Source: a virus
Strand: one strand, 5' to 3'
DNA length: 64,000 bases
IMG/VR virus record: IMGVR_UViG_3300036760_001167
Location: 42,511-106,510 of that record
In this document: piece by piece, positions 22,983 through 56,640 of the stretch
How the letters are laid out: every line of letters begins with the position of its first letter
Numbering within the stretch: the first letter of the stretch is position 1
The notes under the pieces: generated by a model
Databases searched by the model: none
What the model was told of the DNA's origin: nothing
Seen by the model: only the letters and a program-made list of their open reading frames with translations
Program-made: the position numbers and the translations under genes

Positions 22983-24956
22983 TCACGCCGGTGCCGGGGC
23001 GACCTCGCAGGCGTCGGTGGTGCAGTAGAGCTCCTCGGACTCCGCGCCGTCGTGCCCGCGCAGCGCGCCCCATCGTACCGGCCGGAGCGCCTCGGTGCGC
23101 GCCCTGAAGTCCTCGCGGCTCGACGGCTCGACCGGCATCTGCGCGTAGACGCCCTCGCGGTCTGGCATCAGCGACATCGACTTGACGAGCGGCGCGAACA
23201 GCGAGAGCACGTTCCCCACGTGCTTCGCCTCGTCCGGCTGGAAGGTCAGCGTGTTCGACACGGCGTTGTCCGCCCAGCACCTCTGGAGCATCGCGACGAT
23301 GGCGGCCTGCTCGTACAGCGGGACGCGCTTGACCGACCGCGTGCGGCCGGCGCCGTAGGAGAGCGGGAACGAGAAGACCGCGGTGTCCGGCGTCGCGACG
23401 TCGGGCTCCCACGGCACGCCCGACTCGCGGAGCAGCTCCGCGACCTGCGACTGGTCTCCCATCCGCACGCGGCGGACTACGTACGCGTCCAGCGGGAAGT
23501 GCATCCCCGCCGACACGCCGGCGAGCAGCGACACCGTCCCGGAGGGCTTCACCGTGGTCACGCGCACCGACTCCGCGACGCCCGCCTCCGCGGCGAGCCG
23601 GCGGTTCTCCGCGCGCACGGCGTCGTAGCCGCGGTTCAGCGCGCCGAACACGGTCGAGACCGAGGTCGCGTCCAGCCAGTCCGCGACGCCCGAGACCGAG
23701 ACGCCGATCCGCCGGTTCCTGCTCGTCACCGCGTTGGTCGCGGCCGAGTGGGAGCGCAGCAGCGCGACGGTCGACGCGTAGAACGTCGCGAGCTCGAAGA
23801 TTCGCGGGAGGTCCTCCGGGCAGTGGGTCGGGAAGACCTCGACCAGGTTGCAGAGCTCCATCGACTCGAGCGGGATCTCGCCGCACGGGTTGACCGCGAC
23901 CGCGCGGTCCGGCATGCGGTCGCCGGTCCGGCCGTACTTGCGGATGTTGAGCATGTTGACGATGCCGGGCTCTCCGTTGTCCCGCACGCGGTCCGCGAGC
24001 GCGCCGAGCGCGTCGAAGTCCGCGCTCTCGCGGAGCGCCACGGAGTTGTTGGACAGCCCGCCGATCTCGAGCCGCTCCGGGTACAGGTCGTAGTTCTTGA
24101 GGTTGAGGAACTCCTCGTCGTGCGGCGAGCCGACCGCGAGCTCGGCCGACCTGCGGATGTTGCCGGCGACGACGCAGCGGCCGATCTCGTTCATCACGTC
24201 CGCGATCGTCCGCGTGCTCGACGCCTTCCCGCTCGCCGCGCGCCACAGGTGGGAGCGCAGCCTCTCGTGGAGCTCGACGAGCGGCGCCCTCCCGGCGGAG
24301 ATCCCGCCGAACCCCCGGAGCGGCGCGCCGGCCGGCCTGATCGCGGAGTAGTCGAACTCGACGGGCCTGCCACCGCGCTCGTACGTGCGGACCAGCAGCC
24401 GCACCGACTCGGCCCAGCCCTCGCGCGAGTCCGGGACGCGGAAGACCTCCGGGTCCGACGCCGAGGGCATGGCGAAGCGCAGCGCGGCGGTGTGCGTGGT
24501 GAAGCCGACGCCGACCCCGCACATCAGCGAGTCCATCAGCCAGTGCGCCGCGTCGGCCAGCGAGTCCGTCACCTCGACGGCACCGCAGTTGTTCAGCGCG
24601 TGCGAGCCGCGGTCGTAGACGTAGTCCGTCCCCATCACCCAGAGGCCGCGGCCCGGCGGCAGCAGCTTCATGTCGAACACCGCGCCGGCGAGCTCCTCCG
24701 CGAGCGCGTCCATGCGCGCCGCGTCCCACCTGCGGCCGACCACGTTGACGAGCCAGTCCTTCCTGATCGACAGGACTCCCTCGACGACGCGGGCCACCGT
24801 GTCGGCCCAGCCCTCCTGCCCGCCGCCCTCCATCTGGCGGGAGTAGGTGCGGTAGTAGACGGCCTCCGAGAGACCGCCGAACCCCCACCTGACCGGCCTC
24901 CCCCTGAGCTCCTCGACGACGTGCTTCGGCAGGTGGTAGCGGGCTTCGACGATCAC
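22983..24956 (-). CDS. nrdJ: Class II (adenosylcobalamin-dependent) ribonucleotide reductase
   Basis: 657 residues from a GTG with a GAAGGAG site; an upstream ATG inside the TAAGAT box is rejected. FGGLSEAVYYRTYSR at the start resembles monomeric B12-dependent ribonucleoside-triphosphate reductases. Redox Cys in NNCGAVEV, catalytic NPCGEIPLESMELCNL and a C-terminal C-x4-C pair (CTTDAC) are all present. It makes dNTPs from NTPs and needs host B12. Confidence 0.92.
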   Translation of the reverse strand: MIVEARYHLPKHVVEELRGRPVRWGFGGLSEAVYYRTYSRQMEGGGQEGWADTVARVVEGVLSIRKDWLVNVVGRRWDAARMDALAEELAGAVFDMKLLPPGRGLWVMGTDYVYDRGSHALNNCGAVEVTDSLADAAHWLMDSLMCGVGVGFTTHTAALRFAMPSASDPEVFRVPDSREGWAESVRLLVRTYERGGRPVEFDYSAIRPAGAPLRGFGGISAGRAPLVELHERLRSHLWRAASGKASSTRTIADVMNEIGRCVVAGNIRRSAELAVGSPHDEEFLNLKNYDLYPERLEIGGLSNNSVALRESADFDALGALADRVRDNGEPGIVNMLNIRKYGRTGDRMPDRAVAVNPCGEIPLESMELCNLVEVFPTHCPEDLPRIFELATFYASTVALLRSHSAATNAVTSRNRRIGVSVSGVADWLDATSVSTVFGALNRGYDAVRAENRRLAAEAGVAESVRVTTVKPSGTVSLLAGVSAGMHFPLDAYVVRRVRMGDQSQVAELLRESGVPWEPDVATPDTAVFSFPLSYGAGRTRSVKRVPLYEQAAIVAMLQRCWADNAVSNTLTFQPDEAKHVGNVLSLFAPLVKSMSLMPDREGVYAQMPVEPSSREDFRARTEALRPVRWGALRGHDGAESEELYCTTDACEVAPAPA

Positions 24957-24987
24957 TGGCGCGGCTCCTTCACAGACGGATGTGCCC

Positions 24988-24993
24988 ATCTTA
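24988..24993 (-). promoter_or_regulatory. TAAGAT -10 box of the reductase gene
   Basis: The first three bases are the TAA stop of the dCMP deaminase gene. The reductase GTG lies about 30 bp downstream behind a GGAG site. Confidence 0.5.
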
Positions 24994-25434
24994 CCCCCTG
25001 CGGAAATCTTCTCCCGAACGCGCTGCGCCGGTTGCCAGGAGCGGCGACACCACCTCGATTACGCCGACGCCGCCGAGCTGCCCGAGGCACTCCTCGCACG
25101 GCGCCCGCGTGCAGTACGCCACGGCCCCGCGGGCGCGGGACCCGCGGCGCCTGAGCTGCTCGGCCGCGTTCGCCTCGGCATGCGCCGTCCGGACGCACTT
25201 CCCGCCGACGAGCTCGCAGCCCACGTCGAGGCAGTGCGGCTCGCCCGGCGCCGAGCCGTTGTAGCCGGTCGCCACCACCATCTTGTCCCTCACGACGACG
25301 CAGCCGACCTGCCGCTTCAGGCACGTCGAGCGCGTCGCGGCGGCCCCCGCGAGCAGCATGAAGTACTCGTCCCACGTCGGCCTGACGCGGCGCTCCAGGA
25401 GGATCGCGCGCGGCTCAGCAGGTGCAGGGGGCAT
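24991..25434 (-). CDS. Deoxycytidylate (dCMP) deaminase
   Basis: 147 residues. TWDEYFMLLAGAAATRSTC, VGCVVVRD, TGYNGSAPGEPHC and the zinc site HAEANA...CTRAPCEEC are all present. Converts dCMP to dUMP. If the ThyA-fold enzyme at 33939 acts on dCMP, both would compete for the same substrate. Confidence 0.92.
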   Translation of the reverse strand: MPPAPAEPRAILLERRVRPTWDEYFMLLAGAAATRSTCLKRQVGCVVVRDKMVVATGYNGSAPGEPHCLDVGCELVGGKCVRTAHAEANAAEQLRRRGSRARGAVAYCTRAPCEECLGQLGGVGVIEVVSPLLATGAARSGEDFRRG

Positions 25435-33673: not shown

Positions 33674-33942
33674 TCGGCGGTCCCGCCGGAGTAGGAAACC
33701 ACCGCGGACGGGACGAACTCGACCCCGTAGATTCCATCCTGGAAGCAGTCGAACCTGTCGATCCGCTGAGTGTCCCCGAGCAGGCTGTTCGACAGGACGA
33801 TCCTGAGCCCGCTCGGGCAGTCGACCCTCGTGCCGTCGAGCAGCGTCACGCTGCCCGGGTCGAGGTACCTGTGGGCGCAGGCCGGCAGGATCAGCGCGGC
33901 GCCGATCGCCAGGCCCGCCGCGTACGCCCGCGCGCTCCTCAC
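33670..33942 (-). CDS. Small lipoprotein
   Basis: 90 residues from GTG. A signal peptide runs VRSARAYAAGLAIGAALILP followed by AC, a lipobox with Cys 22. The mature part is beta-like with two further Cys. It may alter the infected cell surface. Confidence 0.75.
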   Translation of the reverse strand: MRSARAYAAGLAIGAALILPACAHRYLDPGSVTLLDGTRVDCPSGLRIVLSNSLLGDTQRIDRFDCFQDGIYGVEFVPSAVVSYSGGTAE

Positions 33943-34811
33943 AGCTCCCACCCCATTACCTCCGCGTGCTTCTGGATGTACCACTGCTCGCTCCCGGCGC
34001 TCTTCCGGAGCATGCCGTCGCCGATGTCGCGGGCGCGCTGCGCCGCCTCGGCGAACGGGCGGCCGGCCTTGCCGATGCCGTCGGCGAGCGGGTCCGGCGT
34101 GTCGCCGTCCGGCCGCGCGAGTCTCCCGGTCAGCTCCCAGTGCTCCTCGTACACGTGCAGCGACGACGCGTGGTGGAAGTACGTGCCGACCGGCGCGCCG
34201 AGCGCGCGGGCGAGCGAGTGCTGGAGCTGGTTGAAGAAGAACGCGTCGTATGGGAACCCGTGCCAGGCGTCGTTCGACCGCATCGTCACGTGGAGGTCGA
34301 GCGCGTTGAAGAGGTGGCCCAGCTCCGGGTTGGACGGCCGCAGCATGAACTGGAGCTCCGTCGTGCACGGGTAGTTCTTGACGCCCTCGATCGCGTCGCG
34401 CGCCGGGTCCCAGATCGTCACCACCGCGCGGCGCGAGAACGGGTCCTCGCGCAGGCGGCGCTCGACCATCTCCATCTGGCCCCGGACGCGCGGGCCGTAC
34501 GCGCCGTGGAACGCGCCCTGGTCGGCGAAGTTCCGCATGTTCGCGCTCGCATGGAACAGCGCCTCGGCGTCGGAGTACCCGCCGATCAGCTGGAGGGCCT
34601 CCTCGGCCGCCATCTTCGGGCTGACGCCGCGGCCGGTCCCGACCGGCAGCATCGGCGCGTCCGCCGGGATCACGATGGTCGCGGCCAGCACCTCGCGCGT
34701 GACGGTGCCGCGCGGCTCCGCGCGCCGGCCCTCCGCCATCACGGCCTCGACCACGTCGACGTAGCCGCCCACGAGGTCGTCCAGCCTGAGGAGCATCCCC
34801 TCGTTCGTCAC
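33939..34811 (-). CDS. Thymidylate synthase-fold enzyme, possibly dCMP hydroxymethylase
   Basis: 290 residues from GTG. ThyA hallmarks: PVGTGRGVSPKMAAEEALQL, catalytic Cys 149 in NYPCTTELQFM, the phosphate/base-binding RSND (178-181) and HVYEEH near residue 221. At the position of the dUMP-reading Asn (E. coli N177) the sequence reads GFPYD, with Asp 189; T4 dCMP hydroxymethylase also has Asp there. So it may act on dCMP and make hydroxymethyl-dCMP rather than dTMP. Thymidylate synthase remains the alternative. Confidence 0.8.
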   Translation of the reverse strand: MTNEGMLLRLDDLVGGYVDVVEAVMAEGRRAEPRGTVTREVLAATIVIPADAPMLPVGTGRGVSPKMAAEEALQLIGGYSDAEALFHASANMRNFADQGAFHGAYGPRVRGQMEMVERRLREDPFSRRAVVTIWDPARDAIEGVKNYPCTTELQFMLRPSNPELGHLFNALDLHVTMRSNDAWHGFPYDAFFFNQLQHSLARALGAPVGTYFHHASSLHVYEEHWELTGRLARPDGDTPDPLADGIGKAGRPFAEAAQRARDIGDGMLRKSAGSEQWYIQKHAEVMGWEL

Positions 34812-35101
34812 GGCCGCACCGGCTGGACGACGTAGCCCAGCGCGCTCAGGCGGCGCTTCGTCTTCGCGAGCATCTCCGCGCGGACGCGCTCCGCCTTGGC
34901 CTCGTCGACGCCGTCCCCGAAGTAGATCCCCTCGGGGTCGTCGCGGTAGTCCCACACGCCGCCGAGCCGCTCGGTGCCGTCGTCGTTCCGCACGACTTCC
35001 ATCGCGAGGCCGACGGGGTGCAGCACGAGGCGGTTGACCTCCTGCAGGTAGCCACCCTCGCGGAACTCCCGCGCGTCCAGGTACTTGATCTCTCCGGCCA
35101 T
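34808..35101 (-). CDS. Hypothetical protein
   Basis: 97 residues, MAGEIKYLDAREFREGGYLQ. GVWDYRDDPEGIYFGDG and a helical end. Not recognised. GTGA overlap with the ThyA-fold gene. Confidence 0.65.
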   Translation of the reverse strand: MAGEIKYLDAREFREGGYLQEVNRLVLHPVGLAMEVVRNDDGTERLGGVWDYRDDPEGIYFGDGVDEAKAERVRAEMLAKTKRRLSALGYVVQPVRP

Positions 35102-43950: not shown

Positions 43951-44183
43951 AGGTCCCTCCACTCTTCCATCTCGAGCCAGTCCGCGAGGCCCTCCATGCC
44001 CGCGCGGTCCATGGCCATCGCGGCCTCGCGCACCGCGTCGACGAGCCGGCCGTGCTGCTCGTCCAGGCTGTCGTCCTTCGGGTCCTGCCCGCTCGCGCGG
44101 CAGAGGCGGATCCACACGGCCTCGCCGACGGCGGTGCCTCGCGACCAGCGCTCCTCGACGTCGAGGTCGACCGTGTCGGGCAT
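43947..44183 (-). CDS. Acidic helical protein
   Basis: 78 residues, MPDTVDLDVEERWSRGTAVG; ends GLADWLEMEEWRDL. Not recognised. TGATG-type junction with the amidotransferase gene. Confidence 0.65.
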   Translation of the reverse strand: MPDTVDLDVEERWSRGTAVGEAVWIRLCRASGQDPKDDSLDEQHGRLVDAVREAAMAMDRAGMEGLADWLEMEEWRDL

Positions 44184-45175
44184 CACTCGACTCCCTCCCA
44201 CATGTCCGCCTCGACCAGCTCGTCCAGCGCCGGGTCCTCGTCCTTCGCGCGGCCGTAGACGTCGACGCCGTGCAGCATCCACATGTGGTCCACGTGGTCC
44301 TGGCGCTCGTCGAACGTGATGCCGCACCTGAAGCACTTCCAGCTCGTCAGGACCGGCGAGCCCCACGTCTGCGGGTCGCGGCGGGTGCGCGCCTTCGCGC
44401 GGGCCGCGGTTGCGTCGTGCGACGGCAGGACCAGCGTGGTCCGCGGCGCCGCGTAGACGATCGGCTCCGCGACGGGCGCGGGGTGGCCCGCGTGCTTCGC
44501 GGCCGCCGCGACCAGCGCGTCGAACAGCTCCTGCGAGCCGGGCTTCCCGCTCATCTCGGGGTGGAACTGGACGCCCACCATCCAGCCCTCGACCGACTCG
44601 ATGCACTCGACGACGCCGTCCGGCGACCAGCCCGTGGCGACGAACCCGGGCGCGACCTTCGCGACGGCCTGGTGGTGGATGCTGACGACGCTGCGCGTCA
44701 CCTGGCCGAACGCCTTGCGGAGCCGCGAGCCCTTCGCCGATCGCACGGCGTGGTCGTGGCCCAGGTGGTAGCGGCCCGTCTCCGGGTCGCCCTGGATGTG
44801 CTGGTTGAGCGTGCCGCCCATGGTCGCGTTCAGGATCTGCGCGCCGCGGCAGATTCCCAGGATCGGCAGGCCCTTCTCGACGGCGGCCTCGATGCAGAGC
44901 GTCTCGACGAGGTCGCGCAGCTCGTTCGGGTGCTGCGCCTGCTTGTGCGGCTCGGCGCCGTAGAGCGAGGGGCTGATGTCGCTGCCGCCCGTCAGGAGGA
45001 GCGCGTGGTAGCGGCCGCTCCTCAGCGCGGCGATCGCCTTCTCGTCAGCGTAGGCCATGCACTTCGGGTCGCCGCCCGCGCGCCGCACCTTGTGGTCGGC
45101 GTGGCCCAGGACAAGTACCCGCGTCCGCGGCCTCGCGGCCGCCTTCGCCTTCTTCGTCGCCTTCGCGCTGGTCAT
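44183..45175 (-). CDS. Class I glutamine amidotransferase-like protein (peptidase C26 type)
   Basis: 330 residues. The triad is visible: nucleophile Cys 109 in LPILGICRGAQILN, then His 205 and Glu 207 in GVQFHPE, with LLLTGGSDISPSLYG at the oxyanion side. This is the gamma-glutamyl-hydrolase/PuuD branch that cleaves gamma-glutamyl amides. A C-terminal C2H2-like finger (CFRCGITFDERQDHVDHMW) is appended, unusual for the family. It lies next to the amidoligase gene. Confidence 0.85.
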   Translation of the reverse strand: MTSAKATKKAKAAARPRTRVLVLGHADHKVRRAGGDPKCMAYADEKAIAALRSGRYHALLLTGGSDISPSLYGAEPHKQAQHPNELRDLVETLCIEAAVEKGLPILGICRGAQILNATMGGTLNQHIQGDPETGRYHLGHDHAVRSAKGSRLRKAFGQVTRSVVSIHHQAVAKVAPGFVATGWSPDGVVECIESVEGWMVGVQFHPEMSGKPGSQELFDALVAAAAKHAGHPAPVAEPIVYAAPRTTLVLPSHDATAARAKARTRRDPQTWGSPVLTSWKCFRCGITFDERQDHVDHMWMLHGVDVYGRAKDEDPALDELVEADMWEGVE

Positions 45176-45435
45176 GCTCCCACTCCTTCTTCGTTGACGA
45201 TGGTGCACAGGCCGCCCTCTTCCAGCTCGCGGAAGAAGCGGTAGGACGAGGCGTCCTCGTGCATCGCGTGCTCGCTCCAGTTCCATGCTCGCTGCGCCAT
45301 CTCCCGGCGGAACGAGCCCTTGTCGCTCTCGTTCCACGACTCCTCGCGGAGCGCGAGCTCCATCTCGCGCCACGTCTCGCCGGTGAGGATGCTGCCGTCG
45401 GCGAAGATAACCGTCTTGGTCGCGGTCATGTTCAC
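45172..45435 (-). CDS. Small protein between amidotransferase and amidoligase
   Basis: 87 residues from a GTG overlapping the amidoligase stop, or 85 from ATG 45429. VIFADGSILTGETWREMELA onward is helical. Its fixed place suggests a partner role. Not recognised. Confidence 0.65.
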   Translation of the reverse strand: MNMTATKTVIFADGSILTGETWREMELALREESWNESDKGSFRREMAQRAWNWSEHAMHEDASSYRFFRELEEGGLCTIVNEEGVGA

Positions 45436-46433
45436 TCGACCTCCTCGAGCACCGAGCGGGTCGCGTCGAGCTGCGCCTGCAGCGTCGCCACGCGCGCCTC
45501 GACGGTGCCGCGCGTCTCGCCGCTCGTCTCGAACCTGAGCAGCCAGGACGCGTCCTCGGTGGTGAGGCCGAAGGGGATGAGGTCGGTGAGCATCTGGGTG
45601 ACGTCGGTGCCGCTGACGACGGCGCCTGCGAGCGCGCTCGCGAAGAGCGCCTGGCCGAAGCGGACCCACGCCGAGATCTTCTTGAAGTTGGTGGTGCCCG
45701 CGTGCGCCCTGACCTCGACGCTGCCGTGGCGCGGGTAGGCGTGCAGGTTGATGGAGCCGCGCGGGCCGACGGCGCCGATCGCGCGGAGGTCGCGGGCCCT
45801 CAGCAGCGCCGCGGTGCTCTCGCTCGTCCAGGCGGCGCAGTAGCTGTTGTTCCTACGGCTCGGCGCGACCATGCGGAAGATGAGGTCCTGGCGCTCGACG
45901 AACGCGATGACCTGCGCGCGGATCTCGTCGACGCCCTGCGCCCTCATGTCGTGGTGGACGTGCAGGCCGCACGAGCGGTTGACGGTCGCGCCGCAGTCGA
46001 CGAGGGCCTGGCAGACAAGCTGGAGCTGGGCGAAGCCGCTCTCGCCGCGGAGCTTGGGGCTGACCAGCTCGAGGCCGGCGCCGTTGACGCTGCAGTCGGT
46101 CTTGAGCTCCCAGTGCGAGCCGTTCGACGCGCGGTAGCCGTACACGTCGGCGTTGATCCCGACGCGCGCCAGCGCCGCGAGGATCTCGCTGCGCCCTGGG
46201 CCCGTCAGCTCAAGCTCCACGCCGAAGGCGCGGCCCTGGTTGGAGCGCCGCGCACTAGTGGTCGTGGTGCCGCGCTGCGTGCCGTTCGTCCTGTTGTAGC
46301 GGGCGCGGTAGCAGGGCTTGCAGTAGTTGACGAAGCGGCCGCTGGACATGTAGAAGTTCGCGCGCGTCGCTGGAAGCGAGCGCTGGCAGCCGCGGCAGGT
46401 CTTCGTCTCGGTGCTCTCGGTGAAGTCAGGCAC
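45432..46433 (-). CDS. Phage amidoligase (glutamine synthetase-like COOH-NH2 ligase)
   Basis: 333 residues from GTG. An N-terminal zinc finger (C13, C16, C38, C41) precedes the amidoligase core: GVELEL (71-76), WELKTD (108-113), LELVSPKL (121-128), CGLHVHHD (155-162) and NLHAYPRHGSVEVRAH (229-244), the metal and ATP ligands of the amidoligase_2 family. It would join a carboxylate and an amine, often gamma-Glu. First gene after the promoter module at 46483. Confidence 0.88.
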   Translation of the reverse strand: MPDFTESTETKTCRGCQRSLPATRANFYMSSGRFVNYCKPCYRARYNRTNGTQRGTTTTSARRSNQGRAFGVELELTGPGRSEILAALARVGINADVYGYRASNGSHWELKTDCSVNGAGLELVSPKLRGESGFAQLQLVCQALVDCGATVNRSCGLHVHHDMRAQGVDEIRAQVIAFVERQDLIFRMVAPSRRNNSYCAAWTSESTAALLRARDLRAIGAVGPRGSINLHAYPRHGSVEVRAHAGTTNFKKISAWVRFGQALFASALAGAVVSGTDVTQMLTDLIPFGLTTEDASWLLRFETSGETRGTVEARVATLQAQLDATRSVLEEVE

Positions 46434-52906: not shown

Positions 52907-52910
52907 CGCG

Positions 52911-52983
52911 TAGGCACCGAGGGACTCGAACCCTCGACCCGCTCCGTGTGAAAGAGCCGCTCTGGCCGCTGAGCTAGGCGCCT
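52911..52983 (-). tRNA. tRNA-Val(CAC)
   Basis: 7-bp acceptor AGGCGCC/GGTGCCT, T-loop TTCGAGT, anticodon loop TTCACAC (CAC, codon GUG). No encoded CCA. First of a minus-strand array. Confidence 0.92.
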
Positions 52984-52984
52984 G

Positions 52985-53060
52985 TAACGGTGGCCGGATT
53001 CGGACCGGCGATCTCGGGATTATGAGCCCCGCGGGGACGGCCAGACTCCCCTACACCGCA
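52985..53060 (-). tRNA. tRNA-Met(CAT)
   Basis: Anticodon loop CTCATAA, T-loop TCCGAAT. The 1-72 pair is mismatched, as in initiators, but the anticodon stem lacks the full three G-C pairs, so initiator, elongator or Ile2 cannot be told apart. Confidence 0.88.
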
Positions 53061-53061
53061 G

Positions 53062-53132
53062 TAGTCCCAGCGGGGGTCGAACCCGCGCCGACGGCTTGAG
53101 GGGCCGGCGTCCTTCCACTAGACCATGGGACC
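53062..53132 (-). tRNA. tRNA-Glu(CTC) with C33
   Basis: Acceptor GGTCCCA/TGGGACT as in tRNA-Glu. Anticodon loop CCCTCAA puts C, not U, at position 33. Confidence 0.85.
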
Positions 53133-53142
53133 GCGCACTTCG

Positions 53143-53215
53143 TGGACCGCCACGGACTCGAACCGTGACCTCACCGATGAAGAGTCGGGTGTGCTGCCTC
53201 TAACACCTGCAGTCC
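53143..53215 (-). tRNA. tRNA-Lys(CTT)
   Basis: Acceptor GGACTGC/GCGGTCC, anticodon loop CTCTTCA (U33 present), T-loop TTCGAGT. Confidence 0.92.
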
Positions 53216-53216
53216 G

Positions 53217-53290
53217 TAGGAACGGGCGGTCTCGAACCGCCGACCTCCGCCTTATCAGGGCGGCGCTCTAACCTGCTGAGCTACGTTCCA
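53217..53290 (-). tRNA. tRNA-Ile(GAT)
   Basis: Anticodon stem CCGCC/GGCGG with loop CTGATAA; T-loop TTCGAGA. The 1-72 pair is T-T. Confidence 0.92.
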
Positions 53291-53291
53291 G

Positions 53292-53363
53292 AGCCGGCTC
53301 CAGGACTCGAACCCGGACTGCCACCTTACGACGGGGGCGTGCTGCCATTGACACTAAGTCGGC
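53292..53363 (-). tRNA. tRNA-Thr(CGT)
   Basis: Acceptor GCCGACT/AGCCGGC, anticodon loop GTCGTAA, T-loop TTCGAGT. One mismatch each in the acceptor and anticodon stems. Confidence 0.88.
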
Positions 53364-53440
53364 ATGCGACCGGCGGCCCCGCTACCGCGTTCCCCCGGAC
53401 GTTGTCCGGGTTGCCGCGGGCCACGAGCTGCCTGTCAGCG

Positions 53441-53513
53441 AGCGGTGCACGGGGCTCGAACCCGCAACCTCCACCTTGGCAAGGTGGCGTGCAACCAGTT
53501 ACACCTGCACCAC
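53441..53513 (-). tRNA. tRNA-Gly(GCC)
   Basis: Acceptor GTGGTGC/GCACCGC, anticodon stem CCACC/GGTGG with loop TTGCCAA, T-loop TTCGAGC. Confidence 0.92.
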
Positions 53514-53590
53514 GTGTGCCAGGGTCCCTCCCCGCAACCCGCGACTTGCCGACGCCGGCAGTCTCGCGCGGTACCTGGCCTACGGCTTCG

Positions 53591-53662
53591 AGCGTCGTCA
53601 GGGACTCGAACCCTGGCCGCCGGGTTGGAGGCCCGGTGCATCTTCCCTTCTGCCAACGACGC
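53591..53662 (-). tRNA. tRNA-Gly(TCC) with C33
   Basis: Acceptor GCGTCGT/ACGACGC, anticodon stem CCGGG/CCCGG with loop CCTCCAA: anticodon TCC, position 33 is C. Confidence 0.9.
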
Positions 53663-53670
53663 GTTGGTGA

Positions 53671-53752
53671 CCGGCGAGCCCGCCGTCGATCTAAGCGGGA
53701 GGCTGTCAGACCCCGCGCCGCACGGCTTACCTTCGCCGCGGCCGACTCGCCG
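53671..53752 (-). tRNA. Degenerate tRNA-like sequence (Val GAC-like)
   Basis: A CGGCGAG/CTCGCCG acceptor-like pair closes about 80 bases, with a GGGGT/CCTCC stem and CTGACAG loop inside, but no normal T-arm. Likely a decayed tRNA. Confidence 0.35.
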
Positions 53753-53756
53753 ATCG

Positions 53757-53829
53757 TGTGCCAAGCAGGCCTCGAACCTGCGACCTCCCGCGTTTCGAGC
53801 GGGCGCTCTCCCAGCTGAGCTACAGACAC
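53757..53829 (-). tRNA. tRNA-Phe(GAA) with C33
   Basis: Acceptor GTGTCTG/TTGGCAC, anticodon stem CCCGC/GCGGG with loop TCGAAAC: anticodon GAA, position 33 is C. Confidence 0.85.
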
Positions 53830-53832
53830 GCG

Positions 53833-53909
53833 TGGAGCGCCGGCCCGCAGTTTTTGTACTGGTGGGAACCAGTCGCCCAGGCGCTACCCGAGCAGAATCG
53901 CGGTGCTCC
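53833..53909 (-). tRNA. Degenerate tRNA-like sequence
   Basis: 77 bases closed by GGAGC/GCTCC with a D-loop-like GCTCGGGTAGCG, but the anticodon hairpin has a 6-base loop (TTCCCA) and no T-loop motif. Could be the relic of the missing Tyr gene, but I cannot show that. Confidence 0.3.
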
Positions 53910-53910
53910 G

Positions 53911-53983
53911 TGGACCACCGGGGAATCGAACCCCGGACCTCCGCCGTGCGAAAGCGGCGCTCTACCAACTGAGCTAGCAGCCC
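53911..53983 (-). tRNA. tRNA-Ala(CGC)
   Basis: Acceptor GGGCTGC/GTGGTCC, anticodon stem CCGCT/GGCGG with loop TTCGCAC, T-loop TTCGATT. Confidence 0.92.
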
Positions 53984-53998
53984 ATGCCTTGAGACGTG

Positions 53999-54010
53999 AT
54001 CATACCACGT
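53999..54010 (-). promoter_or_regulatory. Promoter-like box inside the tRNA array
   Basis: ACGTGGTATGAT on the minus strand (-10 TATGAT at 53999-54004), identical to the 12-mer at 55100-55111. It would add transcription for the ten or so tRNAs from Ala downward. Confidence 0.55.
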
Positions 54011-54021
54011 CCCGCCGATCG

Positions 54022-54107
54022 CGGTGAGCGGAGGAGTCGAACCCCCAGCCGGCTCTCGCCGGCGGCGCGCTTAGCGGGCGGCCTGCCTTGCCTGTAGCGA
54101 GCTCACC
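54022..54107 (-). tRNA. tRNA-Ser(GCT) with C33
   Basis: Acceptor GGTGAGC/GCTCACC, long variable arm GCCGGC-GAGA-GCCGGC, anticodon loop CCGCTAA with C at position 33. Anticodon stem has mismatches at its outer end. Confidence 0.88.
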
Positions 54108-54108
54108 G

Positions 54109-54180
54109 AGGCACGAGCCGGACTCGAACCGGCGGATGCGGGGGTTGCGGCCCCGCGCGTTACCACTTCGCCACCGTGCC
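54109..54180 (-). tRNA. tRNA-Cys(GCA) with C33
   Basis: Acceptor GGCACGG/TCGTGCC, discriminator T, anticodon stem CGGGG/CCCCG with loop CCGCAAC. Confidence 0.9.
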
Positions 54181-54185
54181 GTACG

Positions 54186-54271
54186 CGGAAGGTCGAGGGT
54201 TCGAACCCCCGCGGCTCACGCCGCGACCCGGTATTCGACGCCGGTTGCCGGCCTCTCCAGCATGACCTTCC
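54186..54271 (-). tRNA. tRNA-Ser(CGA)
   Basis: Acceptor GGAAGGT/ACCTTCC, long variable arm GCGGC-GTGA-GCCGC, anticodon loop GTCGAAT. One mismatch in the anticodon stem. Confidence 0.85.
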
Positions 54272-54272
54272 G

Positions 54273-54343
54273 CGGGCGCTCGAGGTGACGATCCCCGGAC
54301 GGCGGGGTTTGGAATCCCGCCTGCGACCCAACGCGCCGCGCCC
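54273..54343 (-). tRNA. tRNA-Trp(CCA), atypical
   Basis: Acceptor GGGCGCG/AGCGCCC with one mismatch, anticodon loop TTCCAAA. D-loop very short and T-loop ATCGTCA instead of TTCRANY. Function uncertain. Confidence 0.6.
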
Positions 54344-54357
54344 GTGTGGTGCCTTCG

Positions 54358-54428
54358 GGTGATCGAGCGGAATCGAACCGCCGTCACGCGGACCACGACC
54401 GCGCGCTCTGCCACTGAGCTACGAACAC
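54358..54428 (-). tRNA. tRNA-His(GTG) with C33
   Basis: Acceptor GTGTTCG/CGATCAC with an extra G at -1 facing discriminator C, the tRNA-His hallmark. Anticodon stem CGCGG/CCGCG with loop TCGTGGT. Confidence 0.92.
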
Positions 54429-54430
54429 CG

Positions 54431-54504
54431 CGCGCCGCGAAGGATTCGAACCCTCGACCTCCCGGTCCGTAGCCGGGCGCTCTGTCCAGCTGAGCTAGCA
54501 GCGC
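54431..54504 (-). tRNA. tRNA-Arg(ACG)
   Basis: Acceptor GCGCTGC/GCGGCGC, anticodon stem CCCGG/CCGGG with loop CTACGGA. A34 would need editing to inosine by the host TadA. Confidence 0.92.
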
Positions 54505-54531
54505 ATCTCGTACGTACAACGTGTGCACGCG

Positions 54532-54604
54532 CGGGGCCGACGGGAGTCGAACCCGCCTCACCGGCGTGACAAGCCGGCGGCCTCGACCGGATGCCTCCGG
54601 CCCC
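54532..54604 (-). tRNA. tRNA-Asp(GTC)
   Basis: Acceptor GGGGCCG/CGGCCCC, anticodon stem CCGGC/GCCGG with loop TTGTCAC, T-loop TTCGACT. Confidence 0.92.
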
Positions 54605-54605
54605 G

Positions 54606-54677
54606 TACCTCCCCGAGGACTCGAACCTCGCTTCTCCCGGTCCAGAGCCGGGCGTGTTACCGCTGCACCAGAGAGGT
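54606..54677 (-). tRNA. tRNA-Gln(CTG)
   Basis: Acceptor ACCTCTC/GGGAGGT, anticodon stem CCCGG/CCGGG with loop CTCTGGA, T-loop TTCGAGT. Confidence 0.92.
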
Positions 54678-54688
54678 CTGGTCGATCG

Positions 54689-54759
54689 CTGGGACGCAGG
54701 GGGTCGAACCCCGATGAGCGCGTGAACAGCGCGCCGTCCTACCATTGAACGACGTCCCA
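54689..54759 (-). tRNA. tRNA-Asn(GTT)
   Basis: Acceptor TGGGACG/CGTCCCA, anticodon stem GCGCG/CGCGC with loop CTGTTCA, T-loop TTCGACC. Confidence 0.9.
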
Positions 54760-54840
54760 AAGCGCAGGCGCTCTCCTTGAGCTAACGCCACGACCAGAGG
54801 CCGCCGGCGCACGCGACTCGACTCGCGCGTCTCCTGCTCG
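54760..54840 (-). other. Spacer with tRNA fragments
   Basis: GGCGTTAGCTCAAGGAGAGC looks like the 5' third of a tRNA (acceptor start plus D-arm) and GCGCGAGTCGAGTCGCG like a T-arm. They do not form one complete tRNA. Confidence 0.4.
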
Positions 54841-54915
54841 TAGGCGAGGTGGGGGTCGAACCCACAAGCGACGAGGTCTGAGCTCGCCAGGTATACCAGT
54901 TCCCGTCACTCGCCC
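54841..54915 (-). tRNA. tRNA-Leu(CAG) with short variable arm
   Basis: Acceptor GGGCGAG/CTCGCCT, Leu-like D-arm (GACGGGAACTGG), anticodon loop CTCAGAC. Only about five bases separate the anticodon and T stems; bacterial tRNA-Leu normally has a long variable arm. Confidence 0.85.
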
Positions 54916-54972
54916 GAGTGATCCGTGGTCAGCTATGCTGCGCGGCTGATCGCCGCTGGGCATATCGTAGGG

Positions 54973-55046
54973 TCGGGGCGGTCGGATTCGAACCGACGTT
55001 CTCGTGGTCCCAGGCCACGCGGGTTGCCAGGCTTCCCCACGCCCCG
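54973..55046 (-). tRNA. tRNA-Pro(TGG) with C33
   Basis: Acceptor CGGGGCG/CGCCCCG, anticodon stem CGTGG/CCACG with loop CCTGGGA: anticodon TGG, position 33 is C. First tRNA after the array promoter. Confidence 0.9.
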
Positions 55047-55373: not shown

Positions 55374-55522
55374 CGGGCCCTCCTCCTCGCCGTCCGCTGC
55401 CCGACGCGTGCGCGGCTGCGCTTCGCGCGGTCGATCGCCTCCTCGACCGCGGCCCGCGTCGACCGCCGCCTCCCCGCCAGGAGCTGCCTGCCGCGGAGGA
55501 GCAGCGGCCTGTCGGTCACCAT
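55370..55522 (-). CDS. Small basic protein
   Basis: 50 residues from ATG (49 from GTG 55519): MVTDRPLLLRGRQLLAGRRR, about 17 Arg. Overlaps the phosphoesterase stop and ends in ATGA overlap. Confidence 0.6.
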   Translation of the reverse strand: MVTDRPLLLRGRQLLAGRRRSTRAAVEEAIDRAKRSRARVGQRTARRRAR

Positions 55523-56640
55523 CCCTCCGCGTCGCGATCGCCGCAGATGACGGGCGCCTGGACCGTGATGCCGTGCTCGGGCGTCACGACCATGAGCGCC
55601 TGCTGCGACGGCTCCGGCGCGAACTGCCCGTCCGAGGCGTACTCGTCGTACCCCTTGAGCGAGCCGTTCATGATCAGTCCCTGCGAGTACGCGGGGACGT
55701 ACTGGTGGAAGTGGCCGTACAGCCCGTACCTGAACGGGCGGCCCATCTCCTGGCGCTTCTTCGTCTTGCGCAGGTTGCCGCGCTTGACGGGCCCGAAGGA
55801 GCCGATCTCGCTGGTCCCGTTGAAGCGCAGGTTGTCGCCGTGCTCCATCGAGAACACGCTGCCGTAGACGGTGAAGTCCACGTCCGCGCTCTCGGGGATG
55901 TCGAACGTGATCGGGTCGTCAGGGCTGCGCCCCTCCTCGGGGCCGGCCAGGTTGATCGCGAGCAGCCGCGCGATGTGGGTGTCCGCGTTGTTCTCCGAGC
56001 GCTTCTTGTGCCGCGGCTTCTTGGAGTTGCGGCCGTGGTTGCCGGGCGCGGAGACGACGTGGACCTTGCCGAACTCCTCCGCGAACATCTCGACGCCCGC
56101 CTGGAGCCACGGGAGGCAGGTCTCGACGGTGCGGAGCGTGCTCTGCTCGTTCGTCTCGACCAGCTCGTCGTGAATGTCGCCGGAGACCATGTCGCCGCCG
56201 AGCGCCAGCACGATCCCGTCGTACTCGACGCCGGCCAGGTAGTTCCTCGCGACGCGGATCGTCCGCTCGAAGAACCGCTGCGTCCGCTTCTCCGCGATCT
56301 CGAGGTTGTACGCGTTGTACCCGCCGAGCTCGCCAGGCTGCACGACCTCGCCGTAGTGCGCGTCCGAGAACATCGCGACCAGCGTCCCCTGGTGGTGCTC
56401 GCCGTCGCGGACCTCGCCGAGCCACGCGGGCCTGTCGCCGAAGTCCCGCCTGTACAGCGAGAGCTCCGTCGCGAGCTCGTCCGCCTCGGCGGTCGACTCG
56501 CGGAGCTGCGCCGCCACCGCGTCTCGGTCCTTCTTGAGCTTGGTCCCCGCCTCGCGGAGGCGGAAGTTCTGCTCGCGGAGCTGCTCCTGCGTCGCCTTCT
56601 CCCCGAGCTCCTCGAGCGCCTTGCCGAAGTCTCCCTGCAC
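55516..56640 (-). CDS. Metallophosphoesterase (calcineurin-like)
   Basis: 374 residues from GTG, directly after the upstream stop (TAAGTG). An N-terminal coiled coil (about 1-65) precedes the metal motifs: FSDAHYGE, LALGGDMVSGDIH, APGNHGRNS and GLYGHFHQY. It resembles phage phosphoesterases related to SbcD/Mre11 but lacks a partner ATPase here. Could be a nuclease or phosphatase. Confidence 0.85.
   Translation of the reverse strand: MQGDFGKALEELGEKATQEQLREQNFRLREAGTKLKKDRDAVAAQLRESTAEADELATELSLYRRDFGDRPAWLGEVRDGEHHQGTLVAMFSDAHYGEVVQPGELGGYNAYNLEIAEKRTQRFFERTIRVARNYLAGVEYDGIVLALGGDMVSGDIHDELVETNEQSTLRTVETCLPWLQAGVEMFAEEFGKVHVVSAPGNHGRNSKKPRHKKRSENNADTHIARLLAINLAGPEEGRSPDDPITFDIPESADVDFTVYGSVFSMEHGDNLRFNGTSEIGSFGPVKRGNLRKTKKRQEMGRPFRYGLYGHFHQYVPAYSQGLIMNGSLKGYDEYASDGQFAPEPSQQALMVVTPEHGITVQAPVICGDRDAEGW

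What the first reader, a model, noticed from the sequence alone, without database searches (positions are those of the whole stretch)
53062..55046. Seven of 21 tRNA genes have C instead of the near-universal U at position 33
Reading each anticodon loop against a well-paired stem gives C33 in tRNA-Glu(CTC), Gly(TCC), Phe(GAA), Ser(GCT), Cys(GCA), His(GTG) and Pro(TGG). The others keep U33. U33 makes the U-turn of the loop and is part of the site read by several anticodon nucleases. Phage tRNAs with altered anticodon loops have been proposed to escape host tRNA-cutting defences. A coherent third of the array changed at this one base looks selected rather than random decay, since stems, T-loops and identity elements (for example G-1:C73 in His) are intact.
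Basis: partly seen in the sequence, partly recalled or inferred. Interest (0 to 1): 0.82.

Follow-up and report, generated by a model that had tools for sequence, protein, structure and literature searches.

The report
Phage tRNA array rich in C33
A GC-rich actinobacterial phage carries about twenty tRNA genes, and seven of them have lost the nearly universal U at position 33; the loss is real, is seen at lower rates in many phage tRNA arrays but hardly ever in the matching bacterial tRNAs, and more likely reflects looser decoding constraints plus GC-biased mutation than escape from tRNA-cutting defences.

Summary
Confirmed: ARAGORN, and Rfam models where alignments were printed, give C33 in exactly the seven tRNAs named (Glu CTC, Gly TCC, Phe, Ser GCT, Cys, His, Pro TGG). 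C33 is not decay (one of 57 cells at U8/U54/U55 became C) and not a host trait: all 60 non-ascertained chromosomal tRNAs of two GC-rich actinobacteria are U33. It is also not unique. In about 1,700 viral tRNAs, C33 climbs from 0.8% (GC below 45%) to 9.7% (GC at least 62%); the window's 37% is the highest of 91 arrays (p about 0.001-0.003 before look-elsewhere). Three MAG-borne arrays show the same (18/62 C33, against 0/49 elsewhere in those genomes). C33 tRNAs are as well folded as U33 ones and favour purine-35 anticodons, so decoding seems to decide where C33 is tolerated. C33 is depleted in isotypes cut by classic anticodon nucleases, and the window keeps U33 in Lys, Arg, Met, Leu, Gln: nuclease escape is not supported as the general cause. 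Favoured: T-to-C drift at a pyrimidine-only site in redundant accessory tRNAs. The window's atypical isotype mix stays unexplained.

The parts
52910..55046 (-). tRNA array: 19 ARAGORN tRNA genes plus a probable tRNA-Ser(CGA), about 9 genes per kb; absent from the one close relative whose flanks are held
53061..53132 (-). tRNA-Glu(CTC), loop CCCTCAA; C33 is the complement of window base 53101
53590..53662 (-). tRNA-Gly(TCC), loop CCTCCAA; C33 at 53630
53756..53829 (-). tRNA-Phe(GAA), loop TCGAAAC; C33 at 53797
54021..54107 (-). tRNA-Ser(GCT), loop CCGCTAA; C33 at 54076; anticodon stem has a bulged C
54108..54180 (-). tRNA-Cys(GCA), loop CCGCAAC; C33 at 54149
54357..54428 (-). tRNA-His(GTG), loop TCGTGGT; C33 at 54397; host-like loop is TTGTGGT
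54971..55046 (-). tRNA-Pro(TGG), loop CCTGGGA; C33 at 55013
54186..54273 (-). probable tRNA-Ser(CGA) with long variable arm, anticodon loop GUCGAAU (U33), C.A at 31-39; missed by ARAGORN
   Evidence: Rfam tRNA-Sec model 32 bits, below gathering; fold
52910..53060 (-). U33 tRNAs Val(CAC) and Met(CAT); Met has C55 in the T-loop
53142..53513 (-). U33 tRNAs Lys(CTT), Ile(GAT), Thr(CGT), Gly(GCC)
53910..53983 (-). U33 tRNA-Ala(CGC)
54430..54915 (-). U33 tRNAs Arg(ACG), Asp(GTC), Gln(CTG), Asn(GTT), Leu(CAG)
55516..56640 (-). phage exonuclease gene beside the array; 82% identical relative in L009, where no array lies beside it
24991..25434 (-). dCMP/cytidine deaminase family protein beside the ribonucleotide reductase gene; best solved relatives are dCMP deaminases

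Best explanation
The array is an accessory tRNA island of a tailed phage of Actinomycetota. Seven of its tRNA genes each took a separate T-to-C change at position 33. Only a pyrimidine is tolerated there, so the genes still make usable tRNAs. The change accumulates because (i) the genome is 72% GC and mutation favours C, and (ii) phage-array tRNAs duplicate host tRNAs, so a modest loss of U-turn stability is affordable. Shown: C33 in seven genes; conservation of the other landmark Us; rise of C33 with GC in viral arrays; near-absence from GC-matched chromosomal tRNAs; no extra degeneracy of C33 tRNAs; preference for purine-35 anticodons, where the 2'-OH of residue 33 makes an additional bond to base 35. 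Inferred: mutation bias, relaxed constraint, and that these tRNAs are charged and decode.
For: C33 by locus GC in viral tRNAs, ascertained genes removed: 0.8%, 3.6%, 8.5%, 9.7% for GC below .45.45-.55.55-.62, at least .62. Chromosomal tRNAs of two GC-rich actinobacteria 0/60; tRNAs outside the array in three MAGs 0/49 against 18/62 inside. Non-U33 bases are almost only C; the rare A33/G33 genes are visibly degenerate while C33 genes are not (anticodon stem 4.88 against 4.82 pairs; U8 deviations 9% against 13%). Purine-35 enrichment OR 3.7, p=1e-5, weaker in a separate sample (OR 2.2, p=0.02), with a structural reason in PMC9023292. The nearest pooled homologue of each of the seven is U33, so the changes look independent. 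Relative L009 lacks the array.
Against: The window's rate (37%) is about four times the GC-matched viral rate, and its C33 set is atypical: Ser(GCT) 0/67 and Cys 1/96 C33 in the pool, 5 of 7 with pyrimidine 35 against 15 of 57 in the pool (p=0.036 on the de-duplicated pool), while the usual C33 isotypes Val, Thr, Ile and Ala keep U33 here. Four of the seven read the phage's own preferred codon (GAG 79 per 1000), so they are not marginal tRNAs. Few viral loci at 70% GC or more were available, so the local background is poorly known. GC and phage clade are confounded.
Confidence: 0.5

Rival explanations
1. Nuclease escape: U33 is part of the site read or cut by a host anticodon nuclease, and C33 makes these seven phage tRNAs resistant so that they replace cut host tRNAs.
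For: Phage tRNAs with altered loops are proposed or shown to evade VapC, PARIS and related systems (PMC10264068, PMC12409363). C33 is concentrated in mobile arrays and absent from matching chromosomal tRNAs. The window's isotype set is not the usual tolerated one.
Against: C33 is depleted in classic target isotypes (4/267 against 53/395), and the window keeps U33 in Lys, Arg, Met, Leu, Gln. Documented T5 escape changes are near positions 40-41. I know of no single nuclease that cuts Glu, Gly, Phe, Ser, Cys, His and Pro tRNAs together. Caveat: AriB also cuts Thr(UGU) and Asn(GUU), which do carry C33 in some phages.
Confidence: 0.14
2. Decoding tuning: C33 is selected to weaken A-site binding or alter wobble and slow or balance particular phage codons.
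For: C33 recurs in particular anticodons in both phages and chromosomes: Val(GAC) TCGACAA, Ile(GAT) CCGATAA, Thr(TGT), Ala(TGC), Pro(TGG), and depends on base 35.
Against: The window's seven are not the recurrent set and do not share codon rarity (Mann-Whitney p=0.15). U33C lowered function of a yeast tRNA-Gln (PMC3664417), so a benefit is not obvious.
Confidence: 0.12
3. Loss of translational function: the seven are on their way to pseudogenes or serve as decoys that need not decode.
For: U33 loss weakens decoding; Ser(GCT) has a bulged anticodon stem, Glu and Phe one mismatch each.
Against: Always C, never A or G; U54 and U55 intact in all seven; Rfam scores of six of the seven (52.7-57.5 bits) lie within the range of the U33 genes (24-66 bits); identity elements fit. 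Pooled C33 tRNAs are no more degenerate than U33 ones.
Confidence: 0.08
4. Host-lineage trait or inheritance from C33-rich donors: the real host's own tRNAs carry C33 in these isotypes.
For: Some chromosomes fix C33 in single isotypes, mainly Val(GAC), including Solirubrobacterales and other Actinomycetota.
Against: Conexibacter and Catenuloplanes keep U33 in Phe, Cys, His and Pro(TGG), and in Gly(TCC) and Ser(GCT) where seen. In three MAGs with C33-rich arrays all 49 other tRNAs sampled are U33. Host not identified below phylum.
Confidence: 0.08
5. RNA editing: the genes encode C33 but the phage or host deaminates it to U.
For: The phage encodes a deaminase-fold protein at 24991-25434.
Against: Its solved relatives are dCMP deaminases, it sits beside ribonucleotide reductase, and the phage also has thymidylate synthase, so dTMP supply explains it. 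Editing at 33 is not known to me in bacteria.
Confidence: 0.03

Closest known systems
Phage tRNA gene clusters (Morgado and Vicente 2019, PMC6409571)
   Same: At least 15 tRNA genes at more than 2 per kb in a large tailed-phage genome, most isotypes represented.
   Different: Over a third of the genes have C33; the passages read from that paper do not concern position 33.
Anticodon-loop-mutated phage tRNAs proposed to evade anticodon nucleases (van den Berg 2023, PMC10264068)
   Same: Anticodon loops differ from host-like counterparts in an actinobacteriophage tRNA array.
   Different: Here the shared change is U33C in isotypes that are not the listed nuclease targets; position 33 is not named in that paper's main text.
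Natural C33 tRNAs of bacterial chromosomes (found here, for example Val(GAC) TCGACAA)
   Same: Same U33C change in otherwise normal tRNAs.
   Different: Chromosomal cases are single isotypes, mostly Val, Ala and Thr; here seven isotypes in one array, mostly others.

Membership tests
Phage tRNA gene cluster | at least 15 tRNA genes at a density of at least 2 per kb | tested here: met
   19 genes in 2.14 kb; threshold from PMC6409571
Phage tRNA gene cluster | located in a virus genome | tested here: met
   virus record with terminase, DNA polymerase, primase, RNR and ligase genes; terminase nearest to actinophages
Nuclease-evading phage tRNAs | anticodon loop differs from the host counterpart | tested here: inconclusive
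   differs from two GC-rich actinobacteria; the true host is unknown
Nuclease-evading phage tRNAs | changed tRNAs are known targets of anticodon nucleases, changed at the cut or recognition site | tested here: not met
   classic targets Lys, Arg, Met, Leu, Gln keep U33; pooled depletion p=8e-9
Nuclease-evading phage tRNAs | resistance to cleavage and rescue of infection | not testable with these tools
   needs biochemistry
tRNA pseudogenes | loss of stem pairing and of conserved T-loop bases | tested here: not met
   Ser(GCT) with a bulge is the weakest case
Host-lineage C33 tRNAs | host chromosome has C33 in the same isotypes | tested here: inconclusive
   not met in the two actinobacteria tested; true host unknown

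The most novel reading that the evidence does not exclude
tRNA arrays of phages and other mobile elements form a distinct class in which U33 is actively replaced by C because of a selective pressure acting on the whole array, such as an unknown U33-dependent RNase or a phage-altered ribosome that accepts C33. The window would be the most extreme case seen here.
Probability: 0.15. Interest if true: 0.85.

Novelty: new variant of a known kind. Interest (0 to 1): 0.52.

Why it matters
U33 is treated as almost invariant. The survey here shows it is routinely broken in GC-rich phage tRNA arrays, in particular anticodons and usually only to C, while the chromosomal tRNAs sampled keep it. That gives many natural C33 tRNAs with which to ask what U33 is for, whether phage tRNAs really decode, and whether array tRNAs live under different rules from host tRNAs. 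It also warns against reading any anticodon-loop change in a phage tRNA as defence escape without a background rate.

Tried and rejected
Frame shift of the anticodon: rejected by Rfam alignments, stem pairing and discriminator bases. Pure GC pressure: rejected as sufficient, since GC-rich chromosomes keep U33. Decay: rejected. Codon rarity: no association. Array-to-array overdispersion: a beta-binomial fit to 85 viral arrays found none, so the window may also be the tail of a common distribution. Close relatives carrying the array: none found; L009 (82% identical exonuclease) lacks it, and L011 (65% identical terminase) has four tRNAs with one C33, Thr(GGT), but its Cys is U33. Other spacers (53836-53910, 54290-54357, 54760-54840) folded no better than shuffled sequence. 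INPHARED megablast: no match. A scan for very GC-rich viral tRNAs gave too few genes to settle the background at 70% GC or more. Paper searches for C33 or U33C with phage or bacterial tRNA genes gave nothing on phage arrays.

Full report
Observation. The window is 64 kb of a 106.5-kb IMG/VR virus record at 72% GC. ARAGORN finds 19 tRNA genes on the minus strand at 52910-55046. The printed Rfam alignments for Glu, Gly(TCC), Cys, His and Pro give the same frame. A twentieth gene, probable tRNA-Ser(CGA) with U33, lies at 54186-54273, and an Arg(CCT) gene with U33 lies elsewhere in the record.

Genome. The phage has terminase, primase, DNA polymerase, helicase, ribonucleotide reductase, exonuclease and DNA ligase genes. 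Its terminase is closest to actinophages (43% to Streptomyces phage Kromp) and a second conserved protein also mostly matches actinophages, so the host is probably an actinomycete. The array is accessory: in the relative L009 the exonuclease (82% identical) and the small gene after it are followed by the amidoligase homologue, with no tRNAs.

Is it only decay? No. U54 is intact in 19/19 and U55 in 18/19; at U8 three genes differ, none to C. C at 33 in 7/19 compares with 1/57 at the other universal Us (p=1.6e-4). The changes are all to C. Exceptions to perfect stems are Ser(GCT) (bulged C), Glu and Phe (one mismatch each). The nearest homologue of each of the seven in a pool of 3,109 other tRNAs is U33, so these look like seven separate changes.

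Background in viruses. I sampled viral tRNAs by scans that did not select for C33, plus 17 annotated phage records, and removed the gene by which each locus was found. C33 is 0.8% at GC below .45 (n=855), 3.6% at .45-.55 (274), 8.5% at .55-.62 (272) and 9.7% at .62 or more (289). Window: 37%, the top of 91 arrays with at least eight genes (next 18%); Fisher p=0.0025 against GC of .62 or more and 0.003 against .66 or more. With isotype-specific background rates 1.7 C33 genes are expected and P(7 or more)=6e-4.

Background in cells. Two GC-rich actinobacteria, Conexibacter and Catenuloplanes, keep U33 in everything sampled except Val(GAC), the gene by which they were found: 0/60 without it. Their loops are Phe CTGAAAA, Cys CTGCAAA, His TTGTGGT, Pro TTTGGGA, Gly(TCC) CTTCCAA, Ser(GCT) TTGCTAC. 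In 149 Actinomycetota genomes one C33 pattern gave 18 hits, nearly all Val(GAC), Ala(GGC) or Thr(GGT) types. Three MAG contigs with dense arrays have 9/28, 5/19 and 4/15 C33 (one encodes RtcB and an HNH nuclease), while 49 of 49 tRNAs sampled elsewhere in the same genomes are U33. These contigs were found through one C33 gene each. C33 therefore belongs to arrays, not to host lineages.

Function. Pooled C33 tRNAs at GC of .5 or more are as well formed as U33 tRNAs, while the few A33/G33 genes are degenerate. C33 depends on the anticodon: Val 9/31, Thr 10/45, Ile 8/37, Pro 6/45, against Arg 0/55, Lys 1/46, Leu 1/48, Trp 0/28. It is commoner where base 35 is a purine (42/301 against 15/356, p=1e-5; separate sample 25/327 against 16/434, p=0.02). 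The residue-33 2'-OH bonds to base 35 only when that base is a purine (PMC9023292), so such loops may afford the loss of U33. I noticed this pattern in the data first and found the structural reason afterwards. It fits tRNAs that still decode.

Nuclease escape. I fixed a set of classic target isotypes (Lys, Arg, Met, Tyr, Trp, Leu, Gln) before counting. C33 is depleted there (4/267 against 53/395, p=8e-9), the opposite of the simple prediction, though partly confounded with base 35. The window keeps U33 in all members of that set that it encodes. AriB also cuts Thr(UGU) and Asn(GUU), which sometimes carry C33 in phages, but T5 escape changes lie near position 40. Cas13a prefers U-rich anticodons (PMC11042736), which the seven do not have.

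What remains odd. The window's C33 set is not the tolerated one: five of seven have pyrimidine 35 (p=0.036 against the pool), Ser(GCT) has no C33 example among 67 and Cys one among 96, and Val, Thr, Ile and Ala keep U33. Glu, Phe, Cys and His read the phage's preferred codons. So a specific cause in this phage or its host is not excluded.

Verdict. Real, above background, and part of a wider pattern that I did not find described in the papers searched. Most likely near-neutral T-to-C change at a pyrimidine-only site in redundant, GC-rich phage tRNAs (0.5); nuclease escape 0.14.

Noticed in passing
window 54186-54273 (-): Probable tRNA-Ser(CGA) with a long variable arm that ARAGORN misses; it scores only with the tRNA-Sec model, below its gathering score.
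   Followed up: partly
L096, L102, L104, L107 and many of L116-L235: tRNA-Ile(GAT) with loop CCGATAA (C33) recurs in phages of Caulobacter, Vibrio, Escherichia and Phaeobacter and in dozens of IMG/VR contigs.
   Followed up: partly
L354-L433 (genome contigs): Chromosomal tRNA-Val(GAC) with C33 (TCGACAA or TCGACAC) recurs in distant bacteria, with Val(TAC) CCTACAA in Clostridia; a natural exception to U33 in cells.
   Followed up: partly
L433, L402, L358: Dense tRNA arrays binned into MAGs carry 9/28, 5/19 and 4/15 C33 while other tRNAs sampled from the same genomes are all U33; L402 also has RtcB and HNH genes between the tRNAs.
   Followed up: yes
pooled viral tRNAs: C33 is enriched where anticodon base 35 is a purine, matching the known 2'-OH(33) to purine-35 hydrogen bond.
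   Followed up: partly
window 22983-25434 and 33939-34955: Adenosylcobalamin-type ribonucleotide reductase beside a dCMP deaminase-like gene, with a thymidylate synthase farther on.
   Followed up: no
window 44183-46433: Adjacent peptidase C26/glutamine amidotransferase and amidoligase genes, syntenic in relative L009.
   Followed up: no
window 52984-53060, 53142-53215, 53440-53513, 54531-54604: Other landmark changes in the array: C55 in tRNA-Met, A8 in Lys(CTT) and Gly(GCC), G8 in Asp.
   Followed up: no
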